Positions 5,080 to 28,391 of a DNA stretch of 36,506 nucleotides are shown piece after piece. The notes beneath the pieces are model-generated. The model searched no databases and was not told the DNA's origin. It saw only the letters and a list, made by a program, of their open reading frames with translations. The stretch spans positions 1-36,506 of the forward strand of contig JAESQQ010000804.1 in NCBI GenBank assembly GCA_016765095.1, in the 5' to 3' direction. The DNA is from Planctomycetota bacterium (lineage in GTDB: Bacteria > Planctomycetota > J058). Position numbers and translations under genes: made by a program. Position 1 is the first letter of the stretch; every line of letters starts with the position of its first letter.

Positions 5080-5736
5080 GTGTCGGACGCCCCAAGTCAG
5101 CGCTGCTGCCGAGAAGACTACGAGGCCTGGCTCGCAGCTTGCGATCGCGGCGACGAAGCGGCAGCGCAGGCTGCCTGTGACGCGCTAGCTCGTTGCCTCT
5201 GTGAGACGTGCGCTGGGCTGGCGCGCTGGCGTGCTCGCTCGGTGTCCGGCGTCGAGGCGGAGGATCTCCTCCAGGAGGCCTGGCGACGCCTCCAAACGCA
5301 CCTCGGGAAGCCGCCCTCCGAGCGGGGCCCGGGCTTTCCCCTCAGCCTGTTTCGGATCGCCCTCCGCTCCGCCACGATCGACGCAGCTCGACGTCACAAG
5401 ACGCGTCGCCTCGTCGCCGGAGGACTGGAAGGCGTCGAACTCCCTCCAGCAGAAGAGCCTGGGGTCGGCCAAGCTGCTGAGGCCAGCGAGGCCCAGGCCA
5501 GGGTTCACGAGACCCTCCAGCGACTCTCCGCCTCGGCCCTCCACGTCGATCGAGTCGCCGTCGACCTGCTAACGCTGCACTACCTCGAAGGGCTGAGCGC
5601 ACCCCAGATCGCTGTTCAGCTCGGCAGGACCACAGGGGCGGTGGAGCAGGCCCTCCGCCGCGCTCGAATGCGCTTCTCAGCGGCGTTCGGCGCCCGACCC
5701 GGAGCCCCGCAGCTGGGCTCAGGGGAGGCGCTGTGA
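5080..5736 (+). CDS. ECF-like RNA polymerase sigma factor
   Basis: 218-residue sigma-70 family protein of ECF size. Region 2 is visible as VEAEDLLQEAWRRL (about 59-72) and LFRIALRSATIDAARR (about 89-104). Region 4 is visible as LLTLHYLEGLSAPQIAVQLG and TTGAVEQALRRAR (about 162-197), the helix-turn-helix that reads the -35 element. GTG 5080 follows GGGAGGGG (5069-5076). The stop overlaps the GTG of the next gene (GTGA at 5733-5736), so translation is coupled. The third gene carries two anti-sigma-type zinc fingers, so this sigma factor is probably held inactive by that product. The N-terminal 45 residues are Cys-rich (Cys at about 9, 10, 21, 30, 36, 38, 42), unusual for an ECF factor and possibly redox- or metal-sensing. 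Its target promoters are unknown. Confidence 0.85.
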   Translation: MSDAPSQRCCREDYEAWLAACDRGDEAAAQAACDALARCLCETCAGLARWRARSVSGVEAEDLLQEAWRRLQTHLGKPPSERGPGFPLSLFRIALRSATIDAARRHKTRRLVAGGLEGVELPPAEEPGVGQAAEASEAQARVHETLQRLSASALHVDRVAVDLLTLHYLEGLSAPQIAVQLGRTTGAVEQALRRARMRFSAAFGARPGAPQLGSGEAL

Positions 5737-6758: not shown

Positions 6759-9700
6759 GCCAGGACGACCGAGCCGAACTCCTCGAGCTGATCGAACTCC
6801 TCGAAGCGGGGAGCCAAGGCCCGAGCCTCAGCCTCAGCCTACTGGGACTTTGCGCTCGCCAGCTCTCGGGGGGGACCTTCTCCGCTGAGCTCCGCGAGCG
6901 CGCCAAGGCCGTCCTTCTGCCCGCACTCGGGGAGAGCGCAGCGTTGGCTGCCGGGCGCTACGAGCGCAGCCTGGCTGCCGCCGAGGCTGGAGTCGGCGAT
7001 CCCTTCTTCGCGGACGACAACGAAGCGCAGCGGCTCGTGATCGAGGTCCTCGAGGCCCGCGACCGCCTCCAGCAAGGCAACGATGCCTGCCGTGCGCTGG
7101 AGCTGGACGCTGGGGAGGGCTTCGTCCTCCTCGGAGAAGAGGAGGAGCGGCTCTCGAGCCTGCTCGATCGCGCGCTGCCTGCCAACCCCTTGCGCCGCGA
7201 GGAGGCACCTGCCTCCAAGCTCGGCTGGTGGTGGACGTATCGCCTCGACTGCGACGAGAACCTCTTGGCCCAGGCCCGCAGCGAAGCCTTGACGCCGCGC
7301 CTGGCGAAGTCCCTCGAGGAGCACTTGCGCGGCTGCCCCTTCTGCGCGCTCGAGCTCGAAGCGGAGGCGGACGTCGACAAGCTGCTCAGTGAAGAGCTGA
7401 AGGATCGCCCGGCCTGCCCCGCCCCCGAAGAGCTCGACGCGCTCTCGCGTGGAAACCTGCCTCCTCACCAGGCCCGCGGCCTCGCCGATCACGTCGAGCT
7501 CTGCGCAGAGTGCAGAGCCGCCTTGCGCGCGGCACCTCGCGCTCGAAGGCGTGAGCCGGCGGGAGTGATCCGCCTGGGGGCCTTGATCGCAGCCCAGCTT
7601 GAGCTGGTCCGCTTCGCCTCCGCCGGTCCTGCGCTCGCGTTGGCGCCCCTTGAGGGGCTTCACCGCGTGACCCGAATGGACTCCACGAGCCAAGAGCCCC
7701 TGGAGATCGGCGTCGTGCATCGCTCCGGTGACGTCCAGCTCGTCGTCTGGGCACCAGGGCTGGAGCGCGTGAGGGTGTTCGACCTCGAGGCTGGCAGCCT
7801 GGACCCCGCTCAAAGCGACCCCGTCGCGACTCTCACGGCCCGCGAGGGTCTGTTCAGGCTCTCTCTAGCCAGCGGAACCGGAGGAGGCAGCATGTTGCTA
7901 GACCTCGGGGAACTGGGCACGCGAGTCGTCGATCCCGAGATCGTCCACCTCTGGGCAGAGCCCTGCGATCGGGCAGTGGTCGAGGCCAAACAGGCCCTGG
8001 CTTTGGGAAGCCCAGCGCTCGCCGAGGAACTCCTCAGGGTCTATGCCAGCAAGCTGGTGCCTGGCTTGCGCCGATCCCTCGCGGAGGCCGCGGTTCGCGA
8101 CCTGGGCATTGAACGTCGTCGCGCGACCCACCTTCCGACTCGGGGAAGCGTCGACACCTTGGTCGCCTGGGGGGGTAAAGGTGGCCTCGTCAGAGTCTCG
8201 GCCCTGACCTCCGACGATCGCGAGACCCCAGGGCAGGGGGCCGAGCTCTGCTCCGCCCTCAGACTCGGCGGCGAGGTCGGGCTTAGCTTTGCCAACAAGG
8301 TTAGGCCGATTGAAAGGAAGCGCTTCTCGAAGCCCGTCCTAGAGCTCGACCTCGAGGGCTCAGAGCTGCGCGGCGCTGGCGCCTCGGTCGGCCTGGCTGC
8401 GGCCTTGGCGCGTTACTCCGCGCTTCTGGAGCTCGACCTCCCCGCAGGACTCCTCGTGACAGGGGTTCTGGTCGGCGCCTCGGGGCGACTCGAAGCGGTA
8501 GACGGTCGGGTGCTGCCCGAGAAACTGCGGGCCGCGGCGAGAGAGCGGGGCCGAGCTCGCGTGATCCTCCCGGCAAGAAACGAGGCGGACGTCCCTGCTG
8601 ACATGGCGTCCACCCTGGACCTTTCTTTTGCGACCGACTTCGCGCAGGCCCTCGACTTGGCCTTTGGCCCCGAGCACCGCTCCGATTGCCAAGACGACTC
8701 GATCGCGGGGCTACGGACCCGCGCCAAGGAGGCCGAACGCTCTTACCGCTGGAAGGAGGCGATTGAGCTGGCTGAGCACCTCTTGGTCCACCCCGAGGCC
8801 CAGGACGGAGATCGGCTCAGCGCACACTGGATCGTCGGCATTTGCCGGACCCACCAAGCGCGACCTACCGAGGCCGCGAGCGCCTTCGCGGTGGCCAGGA
8901 CCTTGCGCGAGAGACTCGAGGCCAACTTTCAGCTCGATCACGTGGACGCCGTGTATCTGGCCATGGGAAGGGCTGATCACCTCGCAGACCTGTTCCGCCT
9001 CGAGGAGGCCATAGACGAGGTCGAGGCAGGTCTAAAGCTCGCGCCCAACCTCGCCTTGAGAGCCAAGGCCTTCGGGCTGCGAGGCCTCTTCCTCCACTAC
9101 GCAGATCGGCAAGCCGAGGCCTTGGAAAGCCTCCAGCAGGCCTCTCAGGCTCTTGAAGGCGCGCCCGGTGGAGGGGATCCCCAGGACCGAAGTCGTTTCT
9201 TCTGCTGGCGCGCTCTGGTCCTCGTGGCTCAGAACGAGTTCACCGAAGCAGGGGTCGCGCTAGAAGCTGGGCTCGCGCTCTCAGAGGAGATTCAAGACGA
9301 GCGGGGCCGGAGCGCCAATCGCGTCTACCTCTACCGCACTAGGGCTCGTCTGGAGGCAGCTCGAGGCTGCTGGGAGGAGAGTTGGACTGCTGCCAAGCTG
9401 GCTCTAGAGGTTCTCGCTGACTCCAGCGGCTACCCAGCCAGTTCTCTGCGGCGACTGGCTGGCCGTGCCCTTCTTGAACTCGGGCGGGTCGAGGAGGGGG
9501 GCGCTGAACTCAAAGCGGGGGCAGAGCGTTCGCCGACTCCGGGTTCTGCCTTGAATTCGCTCTTGAGCGCGCTTCCCCTCGCTGAGCACGCAGCTTGGCT
9601 CTTGGAGACCGGCACGAGCCCCGAGCGTGCGGCAGAGGTGCTGGCAGAGGTCCGAGCGCGCCTCGACGCCTACGCCCCCGCTCAGGAGCGCTTTAGCGCG

Positions 9701-9778
9701 GAGTTGGCGGCTCTTGCGGAGCCTGGGGACCCGGCCCTAAAGGCGCTGCGCCGAATCCTCGCGGCGCTGCCTTACTGA
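6755..9778 (+). CDS. Twin anti-sigma zinc fingers + Lon-like (S16) protease domain + TPR protein
   Basis: 1007 residues, third gene of the sigma operon (ATGA overlap). Two ZAD/zf-HC2-type fingers lie in tandem: Cys166, His190-x3-Cys194-x2-Cys197, and Cys221, His246-x3-Cys250-x2-Cys253. This is the fold by which many anti-sigma factors grip ECF sigma factors. A domain at about 460-640 matches the proteolytic part of Lon: RGAGASVGLAAAL contains candidate Ser544, and GRVLPEKLRAA contains candidate Lys590, followed by ARVILPARNEADVP. The 46-residue Ser-Lys spacing is close to that of Lon. There is no AAA+ module, so the protease would not be an ATP-driven unfoldase. Residues about 650-1007 are Ala/Leu-rich helical repeats of TPR type. 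No transmembrane helix is seen, so it is probably cytoplasmic. The 255-460 region is unassigned. The function proposed, sensing through TPRs, sigma binding through the fingers and cleavage by the Lon domain, is inference. Confidence 0.82.
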   Translation: MSQDDRAELLELIELLEAGSQGPSLSLSLLGLCARQLSGGTFSAELRERAKAVLLPALGESAALAAGRYERSLAAAEAGVGDPFFADDNEAQRLVIEVLEARDRLQQGNDACRALELDAGEGFVLLGEEEERLSSLLDRALPANPLRREEAPASKLGWWWTYRLDCDENLLAQARSEALTPRLAKSLEEHLRGCPFCALELEAEADVDKLLSEELKDRPACPAPEELDALSRGNLPPHQARGLADHVELCAECRAALRAAPRARRREPAGVIRLGALIAAQLELVRFASAGPALALAPLEGLHRVTRMDSTSQEPLEIGVVHRSGDVQLVVWAPGLERVRVFDLEAGSLDPAQSDPVATLTAREGLFRLSLASGTGGGSMLLDLGELGTRVVDPEIVHLWAEPCDRAVVEAKQALALGSPALAEELLRVYASKLVPGLRRSLAEAAVRDLGIERRRATHLPTRGSVDTLVAWGGKGGLVRVSALTSDDRETPGQGAELCSALRLGGEVGLSFANKVRPIERKRFSKPVLELDLEGSELRGAGASVGLAAALARYSALLELDLPAGLLVTGVLVGASGRLEAVDGRVLPEKLRAAARERGRARVILPARNEADVPADMASTLDLSFATDFAQALDLAFGPEHRSDCQDDSIAGLRTRAKEAERSYRWKEAIELAEHLLVHPEAQDGDRLSAHWIVGICRTHQARPTEAASAFAVARTLRERLEANFQLDHVDAVYLAMGRADHLADLFRLEEAIDEVEAGLKLAPNLALRAKAFGLRGLFLHYADRQAEALESLQQASQALEGAPGGGDPQDRSRFFCWRALVLVAQNEFTEAGVALEAGLALSEEIQDERGRSANRVYLYRTRARLEAARGCWEESWTAAKLALEVLADSSGYPASSLRRLAGRALLELGRVEEGGAELKAGAERSPTPGSALNSLLSALPLAEHAAWLLETGTSPERAAEVLAEVRARLDAYAPAQERFSAELAALAEPGDPALKALRRILAALPY

Positions 9779-13955: not shown

Positions 13956-15644
13956 ATGAGCACGCAGTCTTCCGTCAACTTCGCCTTCTTGGCCGTTCAC
14001 GATCCGAGCTTCGATCGGATCGGGCGCTCGGCTGAGGCGCTTCTCTCGGCCGACCCCGACCTCGCGCTGACGTGTCTGCGCAAGCTGGCCGAGCTGATCG
14101 TGACGGGGGTCGCGCACCACGAGCGGGTGAGCTTCTGCACCATTGAGCTCAACGAGCGGATCAAGACCCTCCGCAGCCGCTGCTTGATCGGATTCGTGGA
14201 GGAGGAGGCCCTCGCGATCGTGCGGCGGGCGGGCAACGAAGGGACCCACGCCAAGTTTGGAGAGCTCTATCGCCTCGGGCCCCTCCGCAAGGAGGCCAAG
14301 AAGGCCATGAAATGCATGCGGCGGGTCGGGGTCTGGTTTCACCTCAACTATGGGAATGACCCAGACTTCGAGGACTCGGGCTTTAGCTTCGAGTTCTTGT
14401 CCGGCAGCGGGGCAGACGGCGAAGTCGGGGACGTCTCCGACAGATACGTCGACCTGCACGCGCTCCTCGACCGCGCAGAGATCGCGCTCGAGCGCCACCG
14501 CCGCGAACCCGAAGCACTCGAGGAGCTCGAGCGAGCTCGCAACAAGCTGCGCGCGGACCGCAGCAAGCTAGAGCCTTGGCAGGCCGAATTCTGCCAGCTT
14601 CGAATCGACAGCATTGAGCTCGCACGTCGCAACCACCACGGGGAGCAACCGCAAATCCAGGGGGCCCCCGCCGCGCTCGAGGAGCGCGACCGTGAGCTCC
14701 TACGAACCGGACGTCCAGAGGTCTTGGACGAAGTCACGCTCTTCCACAACCGCTGGGCCGTGGGGCAGCTCAACGCCTTCCTCTTCGAGGAAGCACTCCG
14801 TCAGATCGAGCGCTTCGTCGCGGGTCGCAGCGCTGCCCTCAAGGCGGGCTACGGAGTGTTCGGCACGGACACCGTCCAGGACTACAGCTTGGGGGCGCTC
14901 TTGGGGACCCAAGGGCAGACACAGGCATTTCTGGCCCACCAGGAGCGAGATCCCGGCTGGCTGGACATGGCGATCGAGACCTTCGAGGAGGCCCGTCAGC
15001 GCTTCTCCGACCCTGCCGACAGGGCCCGGCAGGACGCCTACAAAGCGCACGCGATCCTAGACCGTCTCCGCTTCAACCCGGACCAGGACCTCTCTCCTCG
15101 CGAGGAACGATTCCTAGACCGACTCGAGGCTCAGGCCCTAGAGGCAATGGCGGAGTTGGTCCAAGATCCGATCCCCAGCCAGGACTGGCAGCGGGTGTTC
15201 CAGGTCGGGCTCGCGCTCAAGATTGGCCTCGTGAGGGCTCGACCCCAAGGCGTGTCCTGGGAGTTCGCCCAGGCCCTCAACGGCGCGCTCGAGAAGTCGC
15301 TGGAGGACGAAAGCTGGAGCCCTCCCCACCCCTACGAGCAGATCTGCGGGGCCTTAGCGCTGCTCTACCCCCAGTGCCCAGGGCGAATCCGGGCTGCGTT
15401 AACGCGCAGCAGCCAGCAGGATTCGCTCGTCGGGATGATCGCCTTCGTCTACGGGTTGGAGGTTGAGCACCGTCGCGACTCGCTCACGCCCAAGCGCGTG
15501 GAGGGCTTCCTCCGTCGCTGTCAGGAGCAGCCAGGTTGGCCAGCAGGGCTTCGTTCGAGCTCAGCTCTCGACGCGCGGGTGCGAGAGCTTTGCTCGGAGG
15601 AAGGGGGAGGACCCCTGGCCATCTTGCCATTCCATTACGCCTGA
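13956..15644 (+). CDS. DUF4145-like N-terminal domain protein with helical C-terminal region
   Basis: 562 residues. The first 120 resemble the DUF4145 domain seen at the N-terminus of HsdR-type restriction subunits and other defence proteins: NFAFLAVHDPSFDRIGRSAE, then DPDLALTCLRKLAELIV, and AGNEGTHA at about 90. No helicase or nuclease motif follows. The remainder is all-helical, with stretches such as LERARNKLRADRSKLEPWQ and TFEEARQRFSDPADRARQDAY that look like degenerate TPR repeats. ATG 13956 has GAGG at 7 bases and a TAGACT -10-like box at 13933-13938. Its end overlaps the convergent GGCT gene by 10 bases. It may be an adaptor or sensor whose enzymatic partner is elsewhere. Confidence 0.72.
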   Translation: MSTQSSVNFAFLAVHDPSFDRIGRSAEALLSADPDLALTCLRKLAELIVTGVAHHERVSFCTIELNERIKTLRSRCLIGFVEEEALAIVRRAGNEGTHAKFGELYRLGPLRKEAKKAMKCMRRVGVWFHLNYGNDPDFEDSGFSFEFLSGSGADGEVGDVSDRYVDLHALLDRAEIALERHRREPEALEELERARNKLRADRSKLEPWQAEFCQLRIDSIELARRNHHGEQPQIQGAPAALEERDRELLRTGRPEVLDEVTLFHNRWAVGQLNAFLFEEALRQIERFVAGRSAALKAGYGVFGTDTVQDYSLGALLGTQGQTQAFLAHQERDPGWLDMAIETFEEARQRFSDPADRARQDAYKAHAILDRLRFNPDQDLSPREERFLDRLEAQALEAMAELVQDPIPSQDWQRVFQVGLALKIGLVRARPQGVSWEFAQALNGALEKSLEDESWSPPHPYEQICGALALLYPQCPGRIRAALTRSSQQDSLVGMIAFVYGLEVEHRRDSLTPKRVEGFLRRCQEQPGWPAGLRSSSALDARVRELCSEEGGGPLAILPFHYA

Positions 15645-16066
15645 GGACGGACTGGGCCTCGTCGACACTGCCCTTTGACCGAGAGGTTTCGGGGGCGCCA
15701 GAGGCTGGACTCGAGCCTCCGCCACGATCCCGAGTTCAGGTCATTTAGGACGTAGAACCACGCGAGGATGTCCTGGGCTTCTGTCTGGACAAGGCCTTCG
15801 CGTCTACGGTAGAGCAGCGGGTGCCCCTCGAGGCGATCGAGGTGGCTCAGGACGAAGCCTCGGTCGCGGAGTCGCAGGACTTCTCCCTCCACGAAGGCGT
15901 CGGGCTCGGATCGGGCGCCCGGGTAGGCGCCGTTGCACCAAAGGGCGTGGTCAGGCAAGCGAGCGGAGAGAGCCTCGAGGACGTGGGCGCCGATCAGGTC
16001 ATGGTTCACGCCGCCTCGCTTCAGCGTGCCGTAAACGAAGACCCAAACGCAAACCTCTTCGCTCAT
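15635..16066 (-). CDS. Gamma-glutamylcyclotransferase / AIG2-like protein
   Basis: 143-residue GGCT-fold enzyme. The substrate loop VFVYGTLKRGGVNHDLI lies at about 9-25, and VEGEVLRL and LDRLEGHPLLYRR follow, including the Glu expected to act in catalysis. Family members cleave or cyclise gamma-glutamyl amides and related isopeptide-like bonds. ATG 16066 overlaps the helicase-amidoligase stop (ATGA), so the two proteins are made together; a GTG at 16075 is an alternative. Amidoligases of the glutamine-synthetase-like family are known to pair with GGCT-like enzymes, so this is probably the editor or eraser of the bond made by the upstream ligase. The last 30 residues are basic and poorly conserved in appearance. 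Confidence 0.85.
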   Translation of the reverse strand: MSEEVCVWVFVYGTLKRGGVNHDLIGAHVLEALSARLPDHALWCNGAYPGARSEPDAFVEGEVLRLRDRGFVLSHLDRLEGHPLLYRRREGLVQTEAQDILAWFYVLNDLNSGSWRRLESSLWRPRNLSVKGQCRRGPVRPQA

Positions 16067-18291
16067 GCCCCCCACTTCGCCAGCGCGCTGAGTGCCTGGT
16101 CAGCGTGGGGGCACCAGGGGGCGGCCCAGGAGTTGGCGAGGAGGTGATCGCGCCTCTCGGCGAGGGCCGCGCGCATGGGTGCTTCGCAGCCGAGGCTACT
16201 CGCGACCGCCACAATGTCCCCATTGGGGCCTGGGTCGAGGGGGAGCCGGGGCGACTGGCCGCGGAACTCAGCCGAGAGCTGCTGTCCTCGGTGGGCCGCT
16301 TCAAGGATACGCATCCAGAGCGAGATCCAGAGCAGGACCTTGGGGGCCTCGTAGGTCCCGCTGTGGAGGCGAATCTCGATGGTTCCCAAGCCTCCTCGAT
16401 CAAGGAGGGGCGTTGGGTTGACGGCGAGGGTGCGAGACTTGCCGTCGGCGAAGCTGCGTCGCCAATCCTTGAGGTTTCGCAGGGTCTGGAGCTCCGAGAT
16501 CCGCTCGCTCACGAGCTGGCAGTGGCCGTTGCGAAAGCGCGAGGGAGCTACCAATGAGAGCAGGGCCGGCTCGACCTGAGCCACCGTTCCAAAGAGACTG
16601 CGAAGCTGCCGCGCGCAGGCTTTCCAGCCGAGGTGGAGGTGGAGCCCCGTGCGCGTGTTGACGGTCAGGGCGAACTCGGAGCAAGCCCCCTCCAACGCCC
16701 GGCAGGCGTCGACGATCTCTTCGCAGCCCGCCTCCCCGCAAAGGACTCGAGAGGTGACCTCCCAGCCACAGGTGCTGTCCCAGCTCACATTCCAGCGCGA
16801 GTGAGCGTTCGCCTCCAGTCCGTATTCGGGGATCGCCTGGGCCGCAACCAACCCCGGGCCGAGCGCGTCGCGGAGGGCAGCGAGGAGGCCGTCCCCCTTC
16901 TCCTGCCACTCTCGAGAGGGGGCACTTCCGGGGACGAAGCTTCGCTCGGTCAGCTCAAGCTCGACCCCGAAGGTCATTTGGGGTTGGATCTCGAGACCCC
17001 GGAGCAGCTCGTAGCCAGGCCGCCCGGACAATATCTGAATCGGAGCCGGCTCGTATTCGTGTTGCTCCAGACGAGGCCCGCGCTGCCGCTGCCTGTTTGG
17101 GCAACGCTCGCGCGTCTCCTTTCCGAAGAGCATTTCAGGTCGAACGAGGTGCTCCTGGTGGGCGAGGAGCCGGTCGTTGAAGAGGACGACGTTGAAGGAG
17201 TCCTTGCCAGACGCCAGTCGAGCCCCGCGACCGACCATTTGCGCGAAGAGAATCTCGCTGGTCGTGGGTCGCGCCAAGAAAACCGTCTTGGTGTCGGGAA
17301 TGTCGACGCCCATGGTCAGCATGCCGACGTTGATCAGGACTCCTGCGGGGGCCCTTCGGAAACGATCCAGCACCTCGCGGGCCTCTGCTGACGCCATGCC
17401 GGAGTGGAGATAGTCGGCTGCGACACCGGCCAAGCGGAACCGCCTCGCGAGCTCTTCAGCGTGGTCCTTCCCGCAGGCGAACACGATCGTCTTGCCGAAG
17501 TCGTGGCTCCGGTAGGTCTCCACAATCCTCTCGTTGCGAGTGGAGTCGTCGCCCAAGTCCACGAGGGAGCTTGGGGAGAAGTCACCGCTCCTACTGCTGA
17601 GTCGCGGTGTCCACGACGTTCCGGTGTCTACCGGATCCCAGACTATTGGGCTCGCCAAGCGTCCGCGATCGACAAGTTCTCGGAAGCTGATCGCACGCCC
17701 GACCAACTCGAGGGTCGTCGCCGCTCGAGGCGTCGCGGTCAAACCAAGAATCGTCGCCCTCCGCCTGTGGTCACGCCGAATCTTCTTCTGGAGGACCTTG
17801 TTTTCTCCCCAGTGGACCTCGTCGATCACCACCAGGTCGAAGCGGCTTCGCTTCAGCCAAGGTCGGTTCGCGTAGGTCCCGAGCGTGGTGTAGGTGATCG
17901 CGGCGTTGCGGATTTCTGGGAGCTGGCGAAGCCCCCGAGCGCCCACCTTGGCGATCCAGCGCCCACCCAACTCAAAGCGAGCCGCCAAGTCACGCGCGGC
18001 TTGCTCAAGGAGTCGCCAATCTCTAGCGAGCCAAAGGACCCGCTTCCCTCGAGGAATCCAGTCCTCACCAATCCAATCGTTGGCGAGGCGCGTTTTGCCA
18101 CCTCCCGTCGCGAGTGCAATCAGGAGTTCCTGTCCCGGCTGCGGAGGGCAGGCTCGATCGCGCAGCGCTCCGAGGAGCTCCTCCTGGTGCTCGAAGCGAG
18201 TGAGGCGCGCCTGCGCAGGATCGTGGTCAAAGGTCCGAGGAGAGGCAGGAGCGAGTTGGTAGGGCCTAGGTCGGCGACGAGAGGGTGGCAT
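16063..18291 (-). CDS. SF2 helicase fused to glutamine-synthetase-like amidoligase
   Basis: 742-residue two-part enzyme. Residues about 30-400 are a DEAD/DEAH (HsdR/type-III-like) SF2 motor: Walker A ATGGGKT (61-67), motif II DEVH (157-160), motif III TATPR (185-189), a second RecA lobe with VLINVGMLTMGVDIP, and motif VI QMVGRGAR (351-358). Residues about 438-680 match the Amidoligase_2 family: FGVELEL (441-447, Glu444 and Glu446), WEVTSRVL (510-517), TGLHLHLG (548-555), a conserved SRFRNGHC, and TIEIRLHSGT (637-646). These are the ATP/metal and active-site motifs of a COOH-NH2 ligase. ATG 18291 has AAGGAG at 4-5 bases. It is the fourth gene of the MoxR/VWA operon and overlaps the GGCT gene. 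A nucleic-acid motor joined to a peptide-bond ligase is unusual; the substrate is unknown. Confidence 0.87.
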   Translation of the reverse strand: MPPSRRRPRPYQLAPASPRTFDHDPAQARLTRFEHQEELLGALRDRACPPQPGQELLIALATGGGKTRLANDWIGEDWIPRGKRVLWLARDWRLLEQAARDLAARFELGGRWIAKVGARGLRQLPEIRNAAITYTTLGTYANRPWLKRSRFDLVVIDEVHWGENKVLQKKIRRDHRRRATILGLTATPRAATTLELVGRAISFRELVDRGRLASPIVWDPVDTGTSWTPRLSSRSGDFSPSSLVDLGDDSTRNERIVETYRSHDFGKTIVFACGKDHAEELARRFRLAGVAADYLHSGMASAEAREVLDRFRRAPAGVLINVGMLTMGVDIPDTKTVFLARPTTSEILFAQMVGRGARLASGKDSFNVVLFNDRLLAHQEHLVRPEMLFGKETRERCPNRQRQRGPRLEQHEYEPAPIQILSGRPGYELLRGLEIQPQMTFGVELELTERSFVPGSAPSREWQEKGDGLLAALRDALGPGLVAAQAIPEYGLEANAHSRWNVSWDSTCGWEVTSRVLCGEAGCEEIVDACRALEGACSEFALTVNTRTGLHLHLGWKACARQLRSLFGTVAQVEPALLSLVAPSRFRNGHCQLVSERISELQTLRNLKDWRRSFADGKSRTLAVNPTPLLDRGGLGTIEIRLHSGTYEAPKVLLWISLWMRILEAAHRGQQLSAEFRGQSPRLPLDPGPNGDIVAVASSLGCEAPMRAALAERRDHLLANSWAAPWCPHADQALSALAKWGA

Positions 18292-18304
18292 TGTGCTCCT
18301 TGAG

Positions 18305-19711
18305 TTAGGGCAGATTTCGAACGGAAGTGGCGAGCGAGCAGAGATCGCCGGGCCTCGAGCGAGCGTGGCGTTGCGTGAGTAGGACGTGGACCTCGACTCC
18401 TGCCTGTCGCGCTCGCTGTCGGCTGGCGCTCGGGACGGGTCCGTATCCGTCGGTGATCACGAGCGCCTTTCGCGTTCGACTCTCTGCGGCGTGGTCGAGC
18501 ACGCAGCCGAATTCGGTCCCAAGGGTGGTTCGGACGAAGCCCTCGGAGAGGCCTTGGAGGGGGAGGTCGTTGACCTCGGTCGAGAACATGTGGATCGGGT
18601 CGGCGAGGAGGGCGCGGAGGCTGTCGAGGAGGCCGTAGATCCGGCCCTGGGCGGCTCGGGTTGAGCCGGAGACGTCGACATAGACCCTCGCCTTGCGATT
18701 CTGTGAGCGAGGGTCGGGAACCCGGGGGTGGAAGAGGCCTGGCCAGGAGCCAGCCGCGAGCAGGTAGAGGTCCCGGCGTGAGGGTCGAGGAATCGGCGTT
18801 GCCTGGCGCTCGCTCGGCTCGACTCGCGCGGAGGAATCCGGGCTAAGGACACGCTGGAGTTCGCGCCGTAGCTTCGCGATCGCGCGGCTGCTCGGCGAGT
18901 CCAACGCAAGCTGGCCGGGCGTCGATTCGCGCCCCTTCCCATAGCCGAGGATCTCCTCGAGGCCCTCGAGGCCAGTCAGGGCTTCCCCTTCTTCGTCTTC
19001 CTCGCCTTGGCCCTCGTGATCCCCTAGGAAGACTGGGGCCTCCAGGCCTTCTGGCAGAAAGAGGAGCAGCTCCGTCGTGAGGCTTGCTCGACAGCTCTCT
19101 CCCAGCCAGGCGGCGACGTACCAAGCCGACACTTGCTGGGGCAAGACGCCTGGAGGAACCTTGCCTCTGAGGGCTCGGGCGGCAGCTCCGGCGACGTGGT
19201 GATTGGGCGCAGCAGCCCTCGCGACGAGGTCGTGGAGAGGAAGCCCTGAGAGCGGACTTCGGACGAGCAGAGTCGGCGGGAGGAGGAGGATCCCTGGGAA
19301 GGAGGCTCCTCGATAGAGACGCCTGAGCAGCGGGGGAGGGCTGGGGAAGAAGTTGAGCAGGAGCCAAGAGTTGATCCGAATGTCTGCGACGAGGTTGGCC
19401 GCCAGGCGCCCCCGCTCGCTCCTTCGAGCAGCGGCGGAGTCGAGGTCGCCTTGGAGCCTGTGGAGCACCTCGTGGGCGAGGACGAAGATCAAGTCGTCGT
19501 CGGTTTGGAGCTGCTTTTCGAGGAAGACTGGATCGAGCTCGATCCGGCGCTGGTCTCCCTGACCTCCGATCCGAGCAGTGCCGATCCCTGCCACGAGCGA
19601 GAGTTCGCAGCGATCAGTGAGCGCGGCCAGGAGCAGCCCGAGCCGAGCGTCTAGGAGCCAGGCCCTCTCGACCGCGCGATCTAGGCGGAGGGTGAATTCG
19701 CCCGCCCTCAC
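18305..19711 (-). CDS. DUF2201-type metallopeptidase-like / VWA domain protein
   Basis: 468 residues with the usual DUF2201 order. The N-terminal zincin-like part has HEVLH (80-84) in LIFVLAHEVLHRLQGDL, and a downstream NLVADIRIN that likely supplies a further ligand. An acidic linker (about 230-245, EGQGEEDEEGE) leads to a C-terminal VWA domain with MIDAS motif DVSGS (346-350), a Thr in TTLGTEFG (about 395-402) and ITDGYG (419-424). Such proteins are partners of MoxR AAA+ ATPases, here encoded two genes upstream. The GTG start overlaps the preceding stop (GTGA at 19708-19711), and a 13-base gap leads to the helicase-amidoligase gene. Whether the zincin site is proteolytic or only structural is not known for this family. 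Confidence 0.86.
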   Translation of the reverse strand: MRAGEFTLRLDRAVERAWLLDARLGLLLAALTDRCELSLVAGIGTARIGGQGDQRRIELDPVFLEKQLQTDDDLIFVLAHEVLHRLQGDLDSAAARRSERGRLAANLVADIRINSWLLLNFFPSPPPLLRRLYRGASFPGILLLPPTLLVRSPLSGLPLHDLVARAAAPNHHVAGAAARALRGKVPPGVLPQQVSAWYVAAWLGESCRASLTTELLLFLPEGLEAPVFLGDHEGQGEEDEEGEALTGLEGLEEILGYGKGRESTPGQLALDSPSSRAIAKLRRELQRVLSPDSSARVEPSERQATPIPRPSRRDLYLLAAGSWPGLFHPRVPDPRSQNRKARVYVDVSGSTRAAQGRIYGLLDSLRALLADPIHMFSTEVNDLPLQGLSEGFVRTTLGTEFGCVLDHAAESRTRKALVITDGYGPVPSASRQRARQAGVEVHVLLTQRHARSRPGDLCSLATSVRNLP

Positions 19712-20829
19712 GAGGCAGGGCCCAGATCGCAGAGGATTAGGAACCCGTCGTGCAGATTCTCAGCGGCTCGCGCGCGTGGAGTCCCGTCCTCGGGCAAGTA
19801 GATATCGCCCACGAGGTGGCGCAGGACCCAAGCCACCAGACGAGGCTCCTCGATCACTGGCTCTCGGCCGCTGAGCGGAACGAGCGCCGTGCTGGGGCGG
19901 ACGATCGCCGGAGTGGCGAGGACCTTGTGCCTCGGCCGACGGAGCCGGTGCTCAGGCGAGAGCAGCTCTTGGAGTTCGCCCTCGGGAGGGACTCGGACCA
20001 AGGCCCGCGCAGAGAGGTGCCCCTCGAAGAGGGCCTCGCCGCTCAGGTTCCCCCGGCACACGCCCGAGCGGTCGAAGGCTCGCAAGAACTCCTCGGGGAT
20101 CTGGTGCACCGTTCGCTCGCGCAGCGTCGAGCCGTCCCAGATCAGGCAGTCGTCGCTCTCGGAGACGAGCACGCTGAGGCTGCGGGGAACCGAGACTCCG
20201 CGGTGTCTGTGAAGCGTCGGAGCGCTCAGCGAGCACATGGAGAGCGCTGAGCCGCGAAGCCGGCTCGCGCCGAGCTGGGTCTCGATCGGATAGTGGAGAT
20301 CGAAGACCTCTTGGAGGGCGAGGACGCGGTTGAAGTGAGGCGGGCCCTTTTCTTCGGGCAAGCCTGAATAGCGTAGAGCCGGCCTCAGGTCTAAGGCGGC
20401 TTCACACTCGCTCTCCCCCTCCTCTCGGGCGACGCGGAGGAGGCGTCGCAGTCGGTGATCCGAGGTCTCTAGCTCGGCGTCCCTGAGGAAAGCCACGAGG
20501 TCGGGAGCGGAGGAAGCGGTGAGAAAGTCGGCTTCCAAGGGAGCCGCACCCGGGGAACAGAGACGGAACCTCGCAGCAGATTCCCCAGCGCTCTTCTTGC
20601 GGGCCCGAGTCGCCGACCGGCCGGCCACACAGGGCTTGCGATCGCAGACCGGTCCGAGGCGATCGTCGAGGAGCCGAAGGGCGGGGACTCGCAGCTCCTC
20701 CTTTCGGTAGAGCCGGACGGCCCCGTGAACGGGAGCCTCGCGCCAAACCTGGATCCGCACCCCTGTGGAGCCGCGCTGGGCGTCGAGGGTGTCGTTCACG
20801 GGAAGAAACTTCTGTGGGAAGCCGATCAT
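19708..20829 (-). CDS. Hypothetical protein of the MoxR/VWA operon
   Basis: 373-residue protein I cannot assign. It is translationally coupled on both sides: its ATG overlaps the MoxR stop (ATGA at 20826-20829) and its stop overlaps the VWA start. No signal peptide or membrane helix is visible. It has a basic, Ser/Ala-rich patch at about 70-90 (GRSATRARKKSAGES), a pair of Cys in VCDRKPC, and an all-alpha/beta C-terminal half with PRLVAWVLRHLVGDIYLPEDG. Its fixed position between ATPase and VWA partner suggests a third component, for instance the client or a specificity factor of the MoxR/VWA machine. This is inference from gene order. Confidence 0.75.
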   Translation of the reverse strand: MIGFPQKFLPVNDTLDAQRGSTGVRIQVWREAPVHGAVRLYRKEELRVPALRLLDDRLGPVCDRKPCVAGRSATRARKKSAGESAARFRLCSPGAAPLEADFLTASSAPDLVAFLRDAELETSDHRLRRLLRVAREEGESECEAALDLRPALRYSGLPEEKGPPHFNRVLALQEVFDLHYPIETQLGASRLRGSALSMCSLSAPTLHRHRGVSVPRSLSVLVSESDDCLIWDGSTLRERTVHQIPEEFLRAFDRSGVCRGNLSGEALFEGHLSARALVRVPPEGELQELLSPEHRLRRPRHKVLATPAIVRPSTALVPLSGREPVIEEPRLVAWVLRHLVGDIYLPEDGTPRARAAENLHDGFLILCDLGPAS

Positions 20830-22373
20830 GTGCTCAACCCCTCTAGTTCGCTGAACACGTCGTCGATCAACTCACCGAGCGAGAGGCCGCAGGGTGGAGT
20901 GCCGCGTTGCCCAGGTATGACGGAGGCCGGAAATCGGCGGTCGTTCAGCTTGAAGGCCGAGTGCGCGATCCGCGTCGCCTGCTGCCGCTTGCGGTTCGGA
21001 CTGAGCGCCTCTCGAAGGCGGTTTCCGTCATCTAGATCCCCGAGGAGGGAGCGGAGGCTCGTGTTTCGCCAGGCGAAGACCCGGACGGCGGTCCGGAGCA
21101 CGAGGTGTGTCTCGTCCGTCGGGAGACGGAGGGTCCCCCGAGTGAGGGCGCGAGCGAGCTCGGTCAGCCCGATCAGGGCTGCTGCTCGCTGCTCGGGGCT
21201 TTGATACCTCCCTTCAGCCTCCTCGAGGAGTCGAGTCACCGCTTGCTGACGATCCTCAGCGTTGAGCTGGCTCGCCCGCGCGAGGAGCAAGGCTGCAATT
21301 TGGCGGGGCTCCCTCGGGATCCTCAGGCGTCCGAGCAGGTTCTGACCACGAATCGACGCCATCCCAGACTCGTGGGCCGCGCGGAGGAGGGGCTCGCGCA
21401 GGTCCTTCCCGGTGGCCGCGAAGGGGAGCCCGCCACGAAGGACGCGGAGCAAGATCGAGCCGGCCTCCTTCACCGAGAGCCTCCGATCGAGGAGCTGGCC
21501 GGCGACGGCGAGGGAAGCGGCTCCCAGGCGAAAGAGCATTCCCAGTCGCCGACCGTCGAGTCCGGCCTCGCTGCGCTCCAAGAAGCGCCCCGCCACGTTG
21601 GCCCAAAGCGCGACTTGCGCCAACTCGTCCTCCTCGAGCGCGGCGTAGTCCTCCCGAGCAGCCTCCAGCAAAGCGCGCAGGCGGGGAGCCGTGGCTCGAG
21701 AGCCGGCGGCTGGCTCCTCCAGCGCGAGAGAGGCTCCCGAGCGAATGATCTGCAGTCGTTGGGCCTTGCTGAAGCCTGAAACTTCGGGGACCACGACCAC
21801 GGCCGTGAAGCGGCCCGCGAGGGCTTCGTCGAGAGGGAAGGTCCCCTCAAAGCCGACCGGGTTCATGGCGCTTAGCACAACCTTCAAGCGGGGCAGAGCG
21901 AGCCCCATGATCGTCCGGGAGTGGATCACTTCGAGCCACTTGTTCTGCATTGAGCTGTTGGCTCGCGAGAGCTCGTCGATCAGGACCCCGTCCGCGCTCG
22001 TGATCGAGATCGGAGTCGGGGCATAGCGGACCTCGCCCTCCGCCAGGGCCTGGGGAATCGGGAGTCCGATCACGTCCTCGAAGAGGCTCTTGCTCGCGTC
22101 GTAGACCCGAAACACGTCGCAGCCCATAACCTGCTGCCCGAGTCGGCGGGCCGCGAGGGTCTTGGCCGCGCCGATCCCGCCGACGAGCAAGATCGGCTCG
22201 CCGAGCACGAGCCCGGCCACGATCGGGAGCGCGACCCCGCCGAAGCCCACGATCCCCAACTCAAGGAAGGCCTCTTCGAGCGAGGCGTCGATCGTCGATC
22301 CCAGGTCGCTGGCTGGGTCGCACTTGGCTCGGGTGAGCGGAGGAGGAAGGGTAGAGCGGAAGGTGGACGTCAA
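20826..22373 (-). CDS. MoxR-family AAA+ ATPase
   Basis: 515 residues, somewhat longer than a typical MoxR because of a helical C-terminal extension from about 300. Motifs: Walker A GGIGAAKT (65-72), VYDASKSLFEDVIG in the helix-2 insert region, Walker B GVLIDELSRA (129-138, Asp133/Glu134), sensor 1 in LSAMNPVGFEG, and DEALAGRF with the arginine-finger region. MoxR ATPases act as chaperone-like remodelers with VWA partners, which fits the downstream DUF2201/VWA gene. The start is TTG 22373, preceded by AGGA about 8 bases away; no ATG fits before the conserved core. It heads a five-gene overlapping operon. A hairpin and about 166 bases separate it from the two small genes upstream on the same strand. 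Confidence 0.88.
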   Translation of the reverse strand: MTSTFRSTLPPPLTRAKCDPASDLGSTIDASLEEAFLELGIVGFGGVALPIVAGLVLGEPILLVGGIGAAKTLAARRLGQQVMGCDVFRVYDASKSLFEDVIGLPIPQALAEGEVRYAPTPISITSADGVLIDELSRANSSMQNKWLEVIHSRTIMGLALPRLKVVLSAMNPVGFEGTFPLDEALAGRFTAVVVVPEVSGFSKAQRLQIIRSGASLALEEPAAGSRATAPRLRALLEAAREDYAALEEDELAQVALWANVAGRFLERSEAGLDGRRLGMLFRLGAASLAVAGQLLDRRLSVKEAGSILLRVLRGGLPFAATGKDLREPLLRAAHESGMASIRGQNLLGRLRIPREPRQIAALLLARASQLNAEDRQQAVTRLLEEAEGRYQSPEQRAAALIGLTELARALTRGTLRLPTDETHLVLRTAVRVFAWRNTSLRSLLGDLDDGNRLREALSPNRKRQQATRIAHSAFKLNDRRFPASVIPGQRGTPPCGLSLGELIDDVFSELEGLST

Positions 22374-22539: not shown

Positions 22540-23247
22540 TCAGGCGGAGGCGGTCTCCTTAGAGCCCGCCTCCTCGAGCAATCGAGTCAGGTCCTGTTGG
22601 ACGACTGTGGAGAAGAGCACGAAGCGTTCTTCCCACTCCTGCTCCTTGAGCCTCTGGCCAGGGGCGATCTCTTCAAGGGTCTCGCCCAGCTCGAGCACCT
22701 CGCTCTGCTCTTGGAATTCGAGGTTCGCGCGGACCATTCGCTCGAGGAGCACGCAGCGCGCTCGCCAGGCGGCCTGCAGGCTCTCGGCCTCGTTGAGCTG
22801 CCTGAGCAGGCTTAAGACGTCCGCCTCGTCGAGGACCGCGCCTGCGTGCAGCTCCAACTCGGCGAGCTCAGAGGAGCCCTCCTCGATCGCGCATCCGCTC
22901 GCCGCAAGGAGGCGCTCGACCCGGTCGACCGTGCCCGGCCCGACGCGGCTCAGCGCCAGCCAGTGAGCGCGAGTCAGCCGAGACAGCTCCGAAAGCGGAA
23001 TTGAGCGGAACTGCCCACCCTGGGCCCACTCCGTCCCTGCGAAGTAGCCCTTGACCGCGATCCGCAGGGCAGGTCGGAGCTGGCTTGCCAGCTTCGCGAG
23101 CTTCGGGTCCGGGTTTCGCTCCAGCGAATTCCAGGTCAGGGGCTCAGCGCCCTCGCCCCGCAAGGCCGCGCTCGCCCAGGCCATTGCCGCTTCGGGCGTG
23201 GAGTCCTCCGCGTAGGCGCGCTGAAGACTCCGAAGGAGGCGATCCAC
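22540..23247 (-). CDS. Hypothetical protein with helix-hairpin-helix / alpha-CTD-like segment
   Basis: 235 residues, no family recognised over the full length. Residues about 82-118 (SIPLSELSRLTRAHWLALSR followed by GPGTVDRVERLLAASG) resemble the helix-hairpin-helix fold of the RNA polymerase alpha C-terminal domain, a DNA-contacting module. The last 100 residues are acidic, Glu/Leu-rich and probably coiled coil. GTG 23247 lies 2 bases after the stop of the 87-residue gene, so the two are co-translated. They precede the MoxR operon on the same strand and may belong to it, though a 166-base gap intervenes. Confidence 0.65.
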   Translation of the reverse strand: MDRLLRSLQRAYAEDSTPEAAMAWASAALRGEGAEPLTWNSLERNPDPKLAKLASQLRPALRIAVKGYFAGTEWAQGGQFRSIPLSELSRLTRAHWLALSRVGPGTVDRVERLLAASGCAIEEGSSELAELELHAGAVLDEADVLSLLRQLNEAESLQAAWRARCVLLERMVRANLEFQEQSEVLELGETLEEIAPGQRLKEQEWEERFVLFSTVVQQDLTRLLEEAGSKETASA

Positions 23248-23249
23248 GG

Positions 23250-23513
23250 CTAGACCTTTTCCTCGAGAAGCTGCTGGCCCAGCCAGGCCAGGAGCTCGCC
23301 TCGCGAGGTGAACACGTAGCGACGCAAGCTCGGGGGGTGATAGCGCTGCTGACGCTGGAGTTCCTCAGGCAAGTAGTCGTAGTCTGCCGCGTCTTCTTCC
23401 TCAGGCCAGATCGTGCAGGACACGAGGTAGCCGTTCTCGACTTGGCGAAGATCGATCTGAGCGCCCCGAGAAGTCTCTCGGGGACCTGCGTAGGGGTAGC
23501 GACCGGGTGACAT
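23250..23513 (-). CDS. Small hypothetical protein (87 aa)
   Basis: 87-residue acidic, Tyr/Gln/Leu-rich protein without known motifs. It is supported as a gene by a strong AAGGAG six bases ahead of ATG 23513 and by tight coupling to the next gene. The segment WPEEEDAADYDYLPEELQRQ and the amphipathic end ELLAWLGQQLLEEKV suggest a small helical partner protein. The function is unknown. Confidence 0.65.
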   Translation of the reverse strand: MSPGRYPYAGPRETSRGAQIDLRQVENGYLVSCTIWPEEEDAADYDYLPEELQRQQRYHPPSLRRYVFTSRGELLAWLGQQLLEEKV

Positions 23514-23861: not shown

Positions 23862-24830
23862 CTACCGATTCCGCTGCGCGCGAAGCAGAGCGTCTGGTTT
23901 CAAGACCTCGACCTCGTCGCCGAAGCTCAGCACCCAGCGAGAGACTTCGATCAGCGAGCCGACTCGAAAGGTCATGAGCAAGCGCCCGTCTTCCTGCTCG
24001 GCGAAGTGCTGAGAGGGGTGCCACGTCCGCTCAAGGAGGTCTCGCTTGAGCCAGGCCTTGTCGACGAAGAGCAGCTCGACCTCGTGAGTCTCGCGAGGCG
24101 GATACTCAACGAAGATCCCAAAGGAGTGGTGGAGCACCTGCTCGGGCTGGTAGTCCGGCGGATAGACGAAGTGCTCCTCGTGGACCTCAACCTCGAGCAT
24201 TCGATCGACGACGTAGTTGTAGATCCGCTCCTTGCCGGGATAGCGAGCGAAGAGGTGGAGCCCTCCTCGGTGGAGCGCGAGGGTTAGCGGCTCGAGCTCG
24301 TGGTGGTTCGCTTCGCCGTCGAGCGCCTCGTAGCTCAAGCGAATTGGGTGGTGGTCCACCAGCGCCTGAAGGAGCGCCTCCAAGACCTCACCTTGGGCCG
24401 AGTAGTCCTTGGGGGCGCTGGGCACGAAGTAGAGGACTCGGTCTAGGTCGCAAGCCAAAGCGCCCGCCCCGCCTTCGCTCGCGTGACCGAGCAGGTCGGG
24501 TCGACCCGGAACGAAGTCTTCTCGCCCGAGGGCCGCCAGCACCATTCGAGCCAGTCGTCCGGCGGCGGCTTGGACGAGGAGCTGAGCGACGTGCGGCTTC
24601 TCTCCCTCTGGGTCGGCGAGCCGTAGGCAGCGAGCCTCGCCCTCGCCGACCTCCTCGACGCGGCTCTTGCCCTCGCGGAAGAAGGGGAGGAACTGCTCTT
24701 GGAGGGTCTGGCGGTAGTGGCGATAAGTGCGCTCGGCGACGCCAAGCTCCCCACGCAGCTCGGAGACCCGCCAGCCGCGACGGCGCGTCAGGAGGCGGTG
24801 CACGAGGGTCGCGTAGTTGAGGTTAGCCAT
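23862..24830 (-). CDS. WYL-domain transcriptional regulator
   Basis: 322 residues from ATG 24830. An N-terminal HTH (about 1-45, RRGWRVSELRGELGVAERTYRHYRQ, split here by position: residues 16-40) is followed by a WYL-type ligand-binding domain: RLSYEALDGEANHHELEPLTLALHRGG region (about 165-190) and the LFARYPGKERIYNYVVDRM core. A C-terminal extension has LMTFRVGSLIEVSRWVLSFG. WYL regulators often control phage-defence and DNA-damage loci and may sense nucleic-acid ligands. A 15-base palindrome lies 24 bases before its start. It is divergent from the BCS1-like AAA+ gene, so it is the natural regulator of that pair and perhaps of the leftward MoxR operon. The 15-codon longer reading from 24875 lacks support. 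Confidence 0.85.
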   Translation of the reverse strand: MANLNYATLVHRLLTRRRGWRVSELRGELGVAERTYRHYRQTLQEQFLPFFREGKSRVEEVGEGEARCLRLADPEGEKPHVAQLLVQAAAGRLARMVLAALGREDFVPGRPDLLGHASEGGAGALACDLDRVLYFVPSAPKDYSAQGEVLEALLQALVDHHPIRLSYEALDGEANHHELEPLTLALHRGGLHLFARYPGKERIYNYVVDRMLEVEVHEEHFVYPPDYQPEQVLHHSFGIFVEYPPRETHEVELLFVDKAWLKRDLLERTWHPSQHFAEQEDGRLLMTFRVGSLIEVSRWVLSFGDEVEVLKPDALLRAQRNR

Positions 24831-26509: not shown

Positions 26510-27244
26510 GTGGACGATCGGCTGAGGCGCGACGAGCGCGCGGGGCCCCCTGCGAGTCCGGAGGAGGTCGTGGAAGCGGTCCTGAGGGGCCAGCGCACTG
26601 GCCAGCTTGGTGTGGGCGTCTGTTCGGCCTGCGAAGGCCGACAGGTGCTGATCAGCGACTCCGGAGGCGCCGAAGACTGTCCCATTTGCTTTGGCAGCGG
26701 CTGTCTCTGCTCGCGAGCTCACCTCGATCTTGCCGCTTTCGCGGGCGACAAGAAAATGAGGGGCCAACTGGGACATTCGGAGGGCTCGTCCCCTTGCTGG
26801 TGCTCTACGGAAGTGCCCGGATTGGCGGGCTTCCTCGAGACCGTAGAGGAAGGGTGGGGCTTTGTTCCGACGGTCCTGGCCATTAGTAGCGCGATCGGCG
26901 CACCAGGACCCTCGGCCACTCTTCGCCTCGACAAGCGCAGTTTGGTCTTCGTGCAAAAGGCGCTCGACTGGCTCGACGAGCGCTGGGACCTGCTCGACTC
27001 GATCTTCAGCCCAGACGACTGGGGTCTAGCCATGACTCTCCTCGAGCAGACCTGGGTCGACTCCGCTGCGAGCGGGGATACCGACGCGCAGCTAGAGCCC
27101 GCCCGCACGGCCGTCGTCGCGTGGGCCCACCAAGCGCTCTCCCCTGAGCCGAGTCTGCGTCGCCAGAGCACCAATCGGATCTGCACCACCTTCAACACTC
27201 GAGACCCTGTCAGGATTCCGCATCCGGGGCGTCCCTTCTTCTAG
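26510..27244 (+). CDS. Cys-rich zinc-binding hypothetical protein
   Basis: 244 residues. The N-terminal 100 hold DnaJ-like zinc knuckles: CSACEGR (Cys38, Cys41) and CPICFGSGCLC (Cys57, Cys60, Cys65, Cys67), then CWC (Cys96, Cys98). DnaJ uses CxxCxGxG pairs in the same style to bind unfolded protein. The rest is helical and unrecognised. GTG 26510 has a near-ideal AGGAGG (26499-26504) at 5 bases that begins at the last bases of the AAA+ gene, so the two are one operon. It probably acts as substrate adaptor or partner of the AAA+ protein. Its 3' end overlaps the convergent nucleotidase gene by 35 bases. Confidence 0.75.
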   Translation: MDDRLRRDERAGPPASPEEVVEAVLRGQRTGQLGVGVCSACEGRQVLISDSGGAEDCPICFGSGCLCSRAHLDLAAFAGDKKMRGQLGHSEGSSPCWCSTEVPGLAGFLETVEEGWGFVPTVLAISSAIGAPGPSATLRLDKRSLVFVQKALDWLDERWDLLDSIFSPDDWGLAMTLLEQTWVDSAASGDTDAQLEPARTAVVAWAHQALSPEPSLRRQSTNRICTTFNTRDPVRIPHPGRPFF

Positions 27245-28283: not shown

Positions 28284-28391
28284 GAGAGTCAGTATGACCG
28301 GACGGCCGGACGTGTCGCCCGAGCGCAAGCCGCAGGCAGGCGGCGCTGGAGTGCTGGTAGCTTCCTTGTCTTAGCAAGGGAGAGCACGACC

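What the first reader, a model, noticed from the sequence alone, without database searches (positions are those of the whole stretch)
15635..22373. Five-gene MoxR / orphan / DUF2201-VWA / helicase-amidoligase / GGCT operon as a possible new conflict system
The sequence shows five minus-strand genes joined by ATGA or GTGA overlaps (one 13-base gap). MoxR-VWA pairs are known remodelling machines, and glutamine-synthetase-like amidoligases are known to pair with GGCT-like enzymes. I do not know a described system that unites both with a nucleic-acid motor. Inference: a MoxR-VWA chaperone presents a client, a DNA/RNA-stimulated enzyme adds an amide-linked group, and the GGCT-like enzyme removes it. 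Neighbours are CRISPR, Septu and a WYL regulator, so anti-phage defence is likely.
Basis: partly seen in the sequence, partly recalled or inferred. Interest (0 to 1): 0.9.

Follow-up and report, generated by a model that had tools for sequence, protein, structure and literature searches.

The report
MoxR–zincin operon with helicase–amidoligase cargo
In a planctomycete defence island, a previously undescribed three-gene chaperone-protease module shared by several bacteria is followed by a helicase–amidoligase fusion gene and its likely counter-enzyme, a pair seen together with it only here, so the five genes look like a conserved core plus local cargo rather than one established five-gene system.

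Summary
In detail: five co-directional minus-strand genes (15635-22373), coupled by overlaps and one 13-base gap, encode GGACT/AIG2; an SF2 helicase fused to a GS-fold amidoligase; a zincin (HExxH) + VWA protein of the DUF2201 type; an orphan; and a MoxR AAA+. They lie in a real defence island (type I-G CRISPR, Septu, PDC-S08, WYL) of a Planctomycetota MAG. The conserved unit is three genes, MoxR–orphan–zincin/VWA. It recurs in the same order in Planctomycetota and Myxococcota, forms one clade of the zincin-VWA family (100/97), and stays intact where the rest is missing. The helicase–amidoligase fusion was found nowhere else in 392 phylum genomes, phages or plasmids. A second copy of the core in the same assembly (80-88% protein identity) keeps only its first ~90 codons, with the Walker A stretch deleted. 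The five genes are best read as a new ternary-type variant of MoxR–VWA systems plus a lineage-specific cargo pair, probably effector and antidote. The third component matches no Pfam family or known fold. Defence is plausible from context; the amide writer/eraser chemistry is inferred. Side finding: the sister branch often carries a MetK-like gene.

The parts
20826..22373 (-). MoxR-type AAA+ ATPase, 515 aa (core gene 1). Walker A GGIGAAKT, Walker B DELSR.
   Evidence: ORF; PF07726 E=3.3e-12, PF20030 bpMoxR 25.8 bits (below cut-off 27); conserved in the ternary loci
19708..20829 (-). Third component (orphan), 373 aa (core gene 2); no known family or fold.
   Evidence: No Pfam match for any of 8 members; AlphaFold pLDDT 73.6, pTM 0.72 with no PDB or viral fold match at E<=0.001; homologues next to DUF2201 in all ternary loci
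18305..19711 (-). Zincin-like metallopeptidase (DUF2201_N, HEVLH) fused to a VWA domain with full MIDAS, 468 aa (core gene 3)
   Evidence: PF13203; invariant H80 E81 H84 N106 D110 N114 and DVSxS/T/D; VWA fold closest to NorD of NorQD, E=1.6e-4; PF05762 VWA_CoxE in 5 of 14 members
16063..18291 (-). SF2 helicase (ResIII/RadD-like, aa ~34-360) fused to a GS-fold amidoligase (aa ~440-662), 742 aa (cargo gene 1)
   Evidence: PF04851, PF00271, PF12224; RadD/EcoAI-R-like scores; motifs GGGKT 63, DEVH 157, GVELE 442, HLHLG 551, EIRLHSG 639 match those of other amidoligases
15635..16075 (-). GGACT/AIG2-type gamma-glutamyl cyclotransferase, 146 aa (cargo gene 2)
   Evidence: PF06094 E=1.9e-21; best PDB match 3jub (human AIG2-like domain-containing protein 1) E=2.5e-4, with YGTLKRG and the LDxxE stretch aligned
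18292..18304 (.). 13-base gap between core and cargo, with an AAGGAG ribosome-binding-like sequence before the helicase ATG
   Evidence: similar short spacing in the C710 copy
23862..24830 (-). WYL-WCX regulator upstream, same strand (possible regulator, not shown to belong)
   Evidence: PF13280/PF25583; a homologue lies in the Myxococcota locus L056 (E=9.4e-26)
22540..23513 (-). Two small unknown genes (235 aa, 87 aa) between WYL and MoxR; not conserved with the core
   Evidence: no significant homologue in the other ternary loci

Best explanation
The locus is a conserved three-protein, ATP-driven chaperone-protease module (MoxR + third component + zincin-VWA) with a lineage-specific cargo pair (helicase-amidoligase + GGCT) attached behind it in the same operon, in a defence island. 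Shown: the order, the motifs, the conservation and monophyly of the core, and erosion of the fusion gene in the sister copy with the core kept. Inferred: a MoxR ring engages the VWA MIDAS and remodels a client, as in NorQD; the zincin domain cuts the client; the fast-evolving third protein sets client or trigger specificity. The helicase-amidoligase acts on foreign nucleic acid and, through its GS-fold domain, joins a glutamate or similar carboxylate to an amine on a target by an amide bond, as a toxic or marking modification. The GGACT-type enzyme releases such a gamma-glutamyl group as 5-oxoproline and so acts as antidote or reset. The core would hold the effector in check or activate it on infection. 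My confidence by layer: core as a module 0.9; cargo functionally coupled to core 0.5; anti-phage role 0.55; this specific chemistry 0.25. The figure below is for core plus exchangeable effector cargo in defence.
For: Core conservation: MoxR-orphan-DUF2201 in the same order in L011, L012, L050 (=L013), L051, L052, L053, L054, L055, L056; orphan-DUF2201 in L040, mostly with 4-base overlaps. Orphan-bearing zincin-VWA proteins form one branch of 78 sequences, support 100/97, 1 change against 10.5 in shuffles. Purifying selection between window and C710: dN/dS 0.26 MoxR, 0.21 zincin-VWA, 0.43 orphan. Cargo is separable: C710 homology to the fusion ends after ~90 codons with a deletion over the Walker A region, followed by a PLD-helicase ORF; no fusion in 392 genomes. 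Catalytic motifs of the amidoligase and GGACT are intact in the window. Defence context: type I-G CRISPR, Septu, PDC-S08, LmuB-like SMC; the C604 copy lies near AriA/HEC-01-like, Avs2-like and DrmD-like genes. Analogy: MoxR-vWA ternary conflict systems with displaceable effectors (PMC7159879).
Against: Only one intact instance of the core with the cargo exists, so coupling could be accidental. Three of the ternary loci are in defence-like surroundings, all in one assembly; several others (L052, L053, L055) show no clear defence neighbours. No expression or phenotype data. PADLOC has no model that matches MoxR, orphan or zincin-VWA. No promoter-like site was detected by a simple sigma-70 scan, so co-transcription is not shown.
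Confidence: 0.45

Rival explanations
1. Two independent modules: the ternary MoxR-zincin-VWA operon and a helicase-amidoligase/GGCT defence pair that merely inserted behind it in a defence island. They share a transcript at most and have no joint mechanism.
For: All other ternary loci with sequence downstream lack the pair. The core persists in C710 without a working fusion gene. Defence islands collect unrelated modules.
Against: The spacing is operon-like (13-base gap, overlap with GGCT), and the C710 copy shows that the junction predates the split of the two copies, so it has persisted for dS ~0.3.
Confidence: 0.35
2. The core is a housekeeping maturation chaperone (NorQD-, CoxD/E- or RavA-ViaA-like) that matures a metalloenzyme or another complex; the defence island setting is incidental.
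For: Best structural match of the VWA part is NorD in NorQD. The wider MoxR/zincin-VWA family is widespread and is often followed by a MetK-like gene.
Against: Patchy presence (4 of 10 genomes of the order, 12 of 392 of the phylum, about 5 with the orphan), several copies per genome, and a fast-evolving third gene are unusual for housekeeping functions.
Confidence: 0.15
3. The five-gene set is one obligatory system exactly, with the chaperone presenting clients to the amidoligase and GGCT erasing the mark.
For: Five co-directional genes, tight spacing, intact active-site motifs.
Against: Not co-conserved anywhere else; the core is under purifying selection without an intact fusion gene in C710.
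Confidence: 0.05

Closest known systems
MoxR-vWA ternary conflict systems (Kaur et al. 2020, PMC7159879: VMAP, iSTAND, FtsH and beta-propeller types)
   Same: MoxR AAA+ plus a VWA protein plus a distinct third conserved protein, in operons; effector parts are displaced. The MoxR scores just below the cut-off of the beta-propeller-type MoxR model PF20030.
   Different: The third protein matches none of the four types in Pfam and has no known fold; the VWA protein carries an N-terminal zincin instead of a C-terminal effector; the candidate effector is a separate gene.
MoxR / metallopeptidase-vWA pair of jumbo phages (Iyer et al. 2021, PMC7824862)
   Same: MoxR with a VWA protein fused to an N-terminal metallopeptidase.
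   Different: No third orphan component or amidoligase is described there; proposed for virion assembly. This window's protein has no detectable match in the phage collection.
NorQ/NorD and RavA/ViaA MoxR-VWA chaperones
   Same: MoxR ring with a VWA partner; the best PDB match of the model is NorD.
   Different: NorD and ViaA lack the HExxH zincin domain and the third component (own knowledge).
GS-fold amidoligase with AIG2/GGCT neighbours (PMC2588565; Iyer et al. 2009 Mol. Biosyst., not readable here)
   Same: [quoted passage not shown] phage amidoligases are recognisable relatives and phylum amidoligases share the motifs.
   Different: Fusion to an SF2 helicase and position behind a MoxR-VWA operon were not found elsewhere.
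Human GGACT (AIG2-like domain-containing protein 1, PDB 3jub)
   Same: Fold family and motifs of the GGCT protein.
   Different: Substrate unknown here; identity is low.

Membership tests
MoxR-vWA ternary system (general) | MoxR AAA+ with intact Walker motifs beside a VWA protein | tested here: met
   VWA fold, MIDAS
MoxR-vWA ternary system (general) | A third conserved component linked to the pair | tested here: met
   Orphan homologues in every ternary locus, one clade
MoxR-vWA ternary system, VMAP / iSTAND / FtsH / beta-propeller types | Third component with VMAP-C, inactive STAND, double FtsH or beta-propeller domains | tested here: not met
   No Pfam match at E<=1 for any of 8 orphan members; no fold match
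MoxR-vWA ternary system (general) | Displaceable effectors | tested here: inconclusive
   One intact cargo, one eroded cargo followed by a PLD-helicase ORF, others without
DUF2201 zincin-VWA family | HExxH zincin motif plus VWA MIDAS | tested here: met
   PF13203 above cut-off; HExxH in all 11 ternary members and in nearly all others with the region present
DUF2201 zincin-VWA family | Zinc binding and protease activity | not testable with these tools
   Needs biochemistry
GS-fold amidoligase (PF12224) | GxExE, HxH and ExRxxxGT active-site motifs | tested here: met
   GVELE, HLHLG, EIRLHSGT; PF12224 47.4 bits, cut-off 22
GGACT/AIG2 cyclotransferase (PF06094) | YGTL motif and catalytic Glu (E82 of human GGACT, own knowledge) | tested here: met
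   YGTL at 15; the LDRLEG stretch (E83) aligns with LDDFES of 3jub
Known anti-phage system | Match to a described system in PADLOC-DB 2.0 | tested here: not met
   No hit for GGCT, zincin-VWA, orphan or MoxR; only generic helicase hits for the fusion protein

The most novel reading that the evidence does not exclude
A new class of conflict system in which a nucleic-acid-driven helicase-amidoligase writes a gamma-glutamyl (or similar amide-linked) mark on host or phage molecules, a GGACT enzyme erases it, and a MoxR-zincin/VWA-sensor machine gates the pair by remodelling and proteolysis.
Probability: 0.12. Interest if true: 0.88.

Novelty: new variant of a known kind. Interest (0 to 1): 0.55.

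Why it matters
MoxR–VWA machines are widespread but mostly unexplained. This work marks off a discrete three-gene branch, with a zincin-VWA partner and an unknown third fold, in Planctomycetota and Myxococcota, which gives a compact, testable unit. The helicase–amidoligase fusion would be the first nucleic-acid motor fused to an amide ligase known to me and, with GGACT beside it, a concrete candidate for a reversible amide modification in defence. The eroded sister copy offers a natural control for separating core from cargo.

Tried and rejected
Single-protein scan of genome contigs with the zincin-VWA: nothing; the seven-member alignment then gave 80 loci. An HMM search for amidoligases in 392 phylum genomes gave prophage-like and secreted proteins, none fused to a helicase or beside GGCT. 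Plasmid and phage searches with the fusion matched only the helicase half or distant amidoligases. The viral contig scan with the fusion gave nothing (it reaches close relatives only); the zincin-VWA profile gave two distant hits. Fold searches of the orphan gave nothing significant. The small protein between MoxR and zincin-VWA in the sister branch is not recognisably related to the orphan (hhalign probability 0.4%). The idea that GGCT belongs to the conserved core was rejected: its homologues in relatives lie on contigs other than the core's. Atypical base composition of the cargo was rejected: GC 0.64-0.68, like the core. A search centred on a Myxococcota locus was not accepted by the tool.
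Full report
OBSERVATION. The five ORFs exist at the stated coordinates, all on the minus strand, and codon-usage scoring prefers them to the many overlapping ORFs of this GC-rich window. The junctions are ATGA (MoxR/orphan), GTGA (orphan/zincin-VWA), a 13-base gap with AAGGAG before the helicase ATG, and an overlap of 13 bases (GTG start) or 4 bases (internal ATG) before GGCT. Profile searches confirm the calls: GGACT; helicase plus Amidoligase_2; DUF2201_N; MoxR-type AAA_3; none for the orphan.

SURROUNDINGS. The island contains Cas8g and Cas3g (type I-G), a complete Septu pair PtuA1/PtuB1, a PDC-S08 protein, an LmuB-like SMC protein beside a calcineurin-like phosphoesterase, and a WYL-WCX regulator. 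The genome is a Planctomycetota MAG, as judged from named relatives; it is 8.57 Mb in 987 contigs, 84% complete, 4.5% contamination.

THE CONSERVED UNIT. The own assembly holds two more copies of the zincin-VWA gene: C710 (87% identity) and C604 (38%). In both, MoxR and the orphan precede it. The same three genes in the same order occur in relatives of the family and order (G002 twice, G003, G009) and in Myxococcota (L053, L055, L056), nearly always with 4-base overlaps. A Planctomycetota locus of another family (L040) has orphan and zincin-VWA without an adjacent MoxR. In a tree of 78 zincin-VWA proteins the 11 orphan-bearing ones form one branch (support 100/97; one change against 10.5 in shuffles). 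HExxH and the VWA MIDAS are kept throughout the branch. The model of the zincin-VWA protein matches NorD of the NorQD complex best (E=1.6e-4; the other top matches are VWA domains). Only 12 of 392 phylum genomes have a zincin-VWA match at E<=1e-8, about 5 of them with the orphan, so the module is patchy.

THE CARGO. The helicase half resembles RadD and type I restriction motor subunits. The amidoligase half keeps the GS-fold motifs GVELE, HLHLG and EIRLHSGT, shared with other amidoligases of the phylum. GGCT is of the GGACT/AIG2 kind. No helicase–amidoligase fusion turned up in 392 phylum genomes, plasmids, phages or viral contigs (that scan reaches close relatives only). No GGCT or amidoligase lies beside any of the other MoxR/zincin-VWA loci examined. 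The C710 copy is the key comparison: 86% DNA identity runs from MoxR through the core into the first ~90 codons of the fusion gene, a stretch covering Walker A is deleted with a frame change, and homology then stops; a PLD–helicase ORF follows. The three core genes there are open (MoxR as far as the contig reaches) and under purifying selection (dN/dS 0.26 MoxR, 0.43 orphan, 0.21 zincin-VWA). So the junction of core and cargo is older than the split of the two copies, but the core outlives the cargo. C710 may be a second locus or belong to a related strain binned with this genome; either way the comparison stands.

THIRD COMPONENT. The orphan has no Pfam match in any of 8 members. AlphaFold gives pLDDT 73.6, pTM 0.72, a mixed alpha/beta protein with a poorly modelled N-terminus and loops, and no significant match in PDB or BFVD. 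It evolves fastest of the three core genes. I infer a specificity or sensor role; no catalytic motif is evident.

MECHANISM. Best supported: an ATP-driven MoxR ring acting with a zincin-VWA partner, hence remodelling plus cleavage of a client, with the orphan as specificity factor. This is inference from NorQD-type systems (PMC13036017, PMC9976466, abstracts only), the phage zincin-vWA pair (PMC7824862) and ternary conflict systems (PMC7159879). The cargo is read as effector (helicase–amidoligase) and antidote or reset enzyme (GGACT): ligases of this fold join a carboxylate, usually the gamma-carboxylate of glutamate, to an amine (PMC2588565), and GGACT releases gamma-glutamyl groups as 5-oxoproline (own knowledge). 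Whether the target is protein, tRNA or DNA is unknown.

COMPARISON AND NOVELTY. The core meets the general definition of a MoxR-vWA ternary system but none of the four described types, and its VWA partner is of the zincin kind described for jumbo phages. I therefore class it as a new variant of a known kind. The helicase–amidoligase fusion is a new domain architecture as far as these searches reach.

SIDE FINDING. In the sister branch (MoxR–zincin-VWA without the orphan, often with a small protein between), a MetK-like S-adenosylmethionine synthetase homologue directly follows the zincin-VWA gene in 46 of 80 counted loci, in none of the orphan-bearing ones, and across several phyla including Planctomycetota, Pseudomonadota, Acidobacteriota, Gemmatimonadota and Chloroflexota. 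No description of this was found in the papers searched.

Noticed in passing
L060:9345-12336; L063, L075, L103 and others: A widespread operon MoxR, small ~180-215 aa protein, zincin-VWA (DUF2201), MetK-like SAM synthetase homologue: the MetK-like gene directly follows in 46 of 80 counted loci, in several phyla. It scores below the curated metK equivalog cut-off (159.6 against 309.4 bits), so it is a divergent paralogue.
   Followed up: partly
G000:C710 = L011:4660-6978: A PLD-nuclease/SF2-helicase ORF (PbeA/type IV restriction-like scores) follows the eroded helicase-amidoligase remnant in the sister copy of the core.
   Followed up: partly
G000:C604 = L012:1039-18490: The more distant copy of the ternary core lies near an AriA/HEC-01-like ATPase with a small partner, an Avs2-like 1360-aa protein, a DrmD-like SNF2 helicase and an SbcD/SbcC-like pair.
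   Followed up: partly
window 27210-33328: PDC-S08 gene (E=1e-121), then a calcineurin-like phosphoesterase gene on the other strand followed by a 1219-aa LmuB/SMC-like gene: an SbcCD/Lamassu-like pair.
   Followed up: no
window 5080-9778: ECF-like sigma factor, a 341-aa unknown and a 1007-aa protein with a weak Lon_C match, in tight order between the CRISPR and Septu genes.
   Followed up: no
window 13956-15644: DUF4145 protein (PDC-M16A-like N-terminus) on the plus strand, convergent with and overlapping the end of GGCT by 10 bases.
   Followed up: no
L140-L142, L145 (G007, G003, G005): Very large (1300-2400 aa) probably secreted proteins of this order with amidoligase-like domains and many repeats of a helix-hairpin-helix-like kind.
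   Followed up: no
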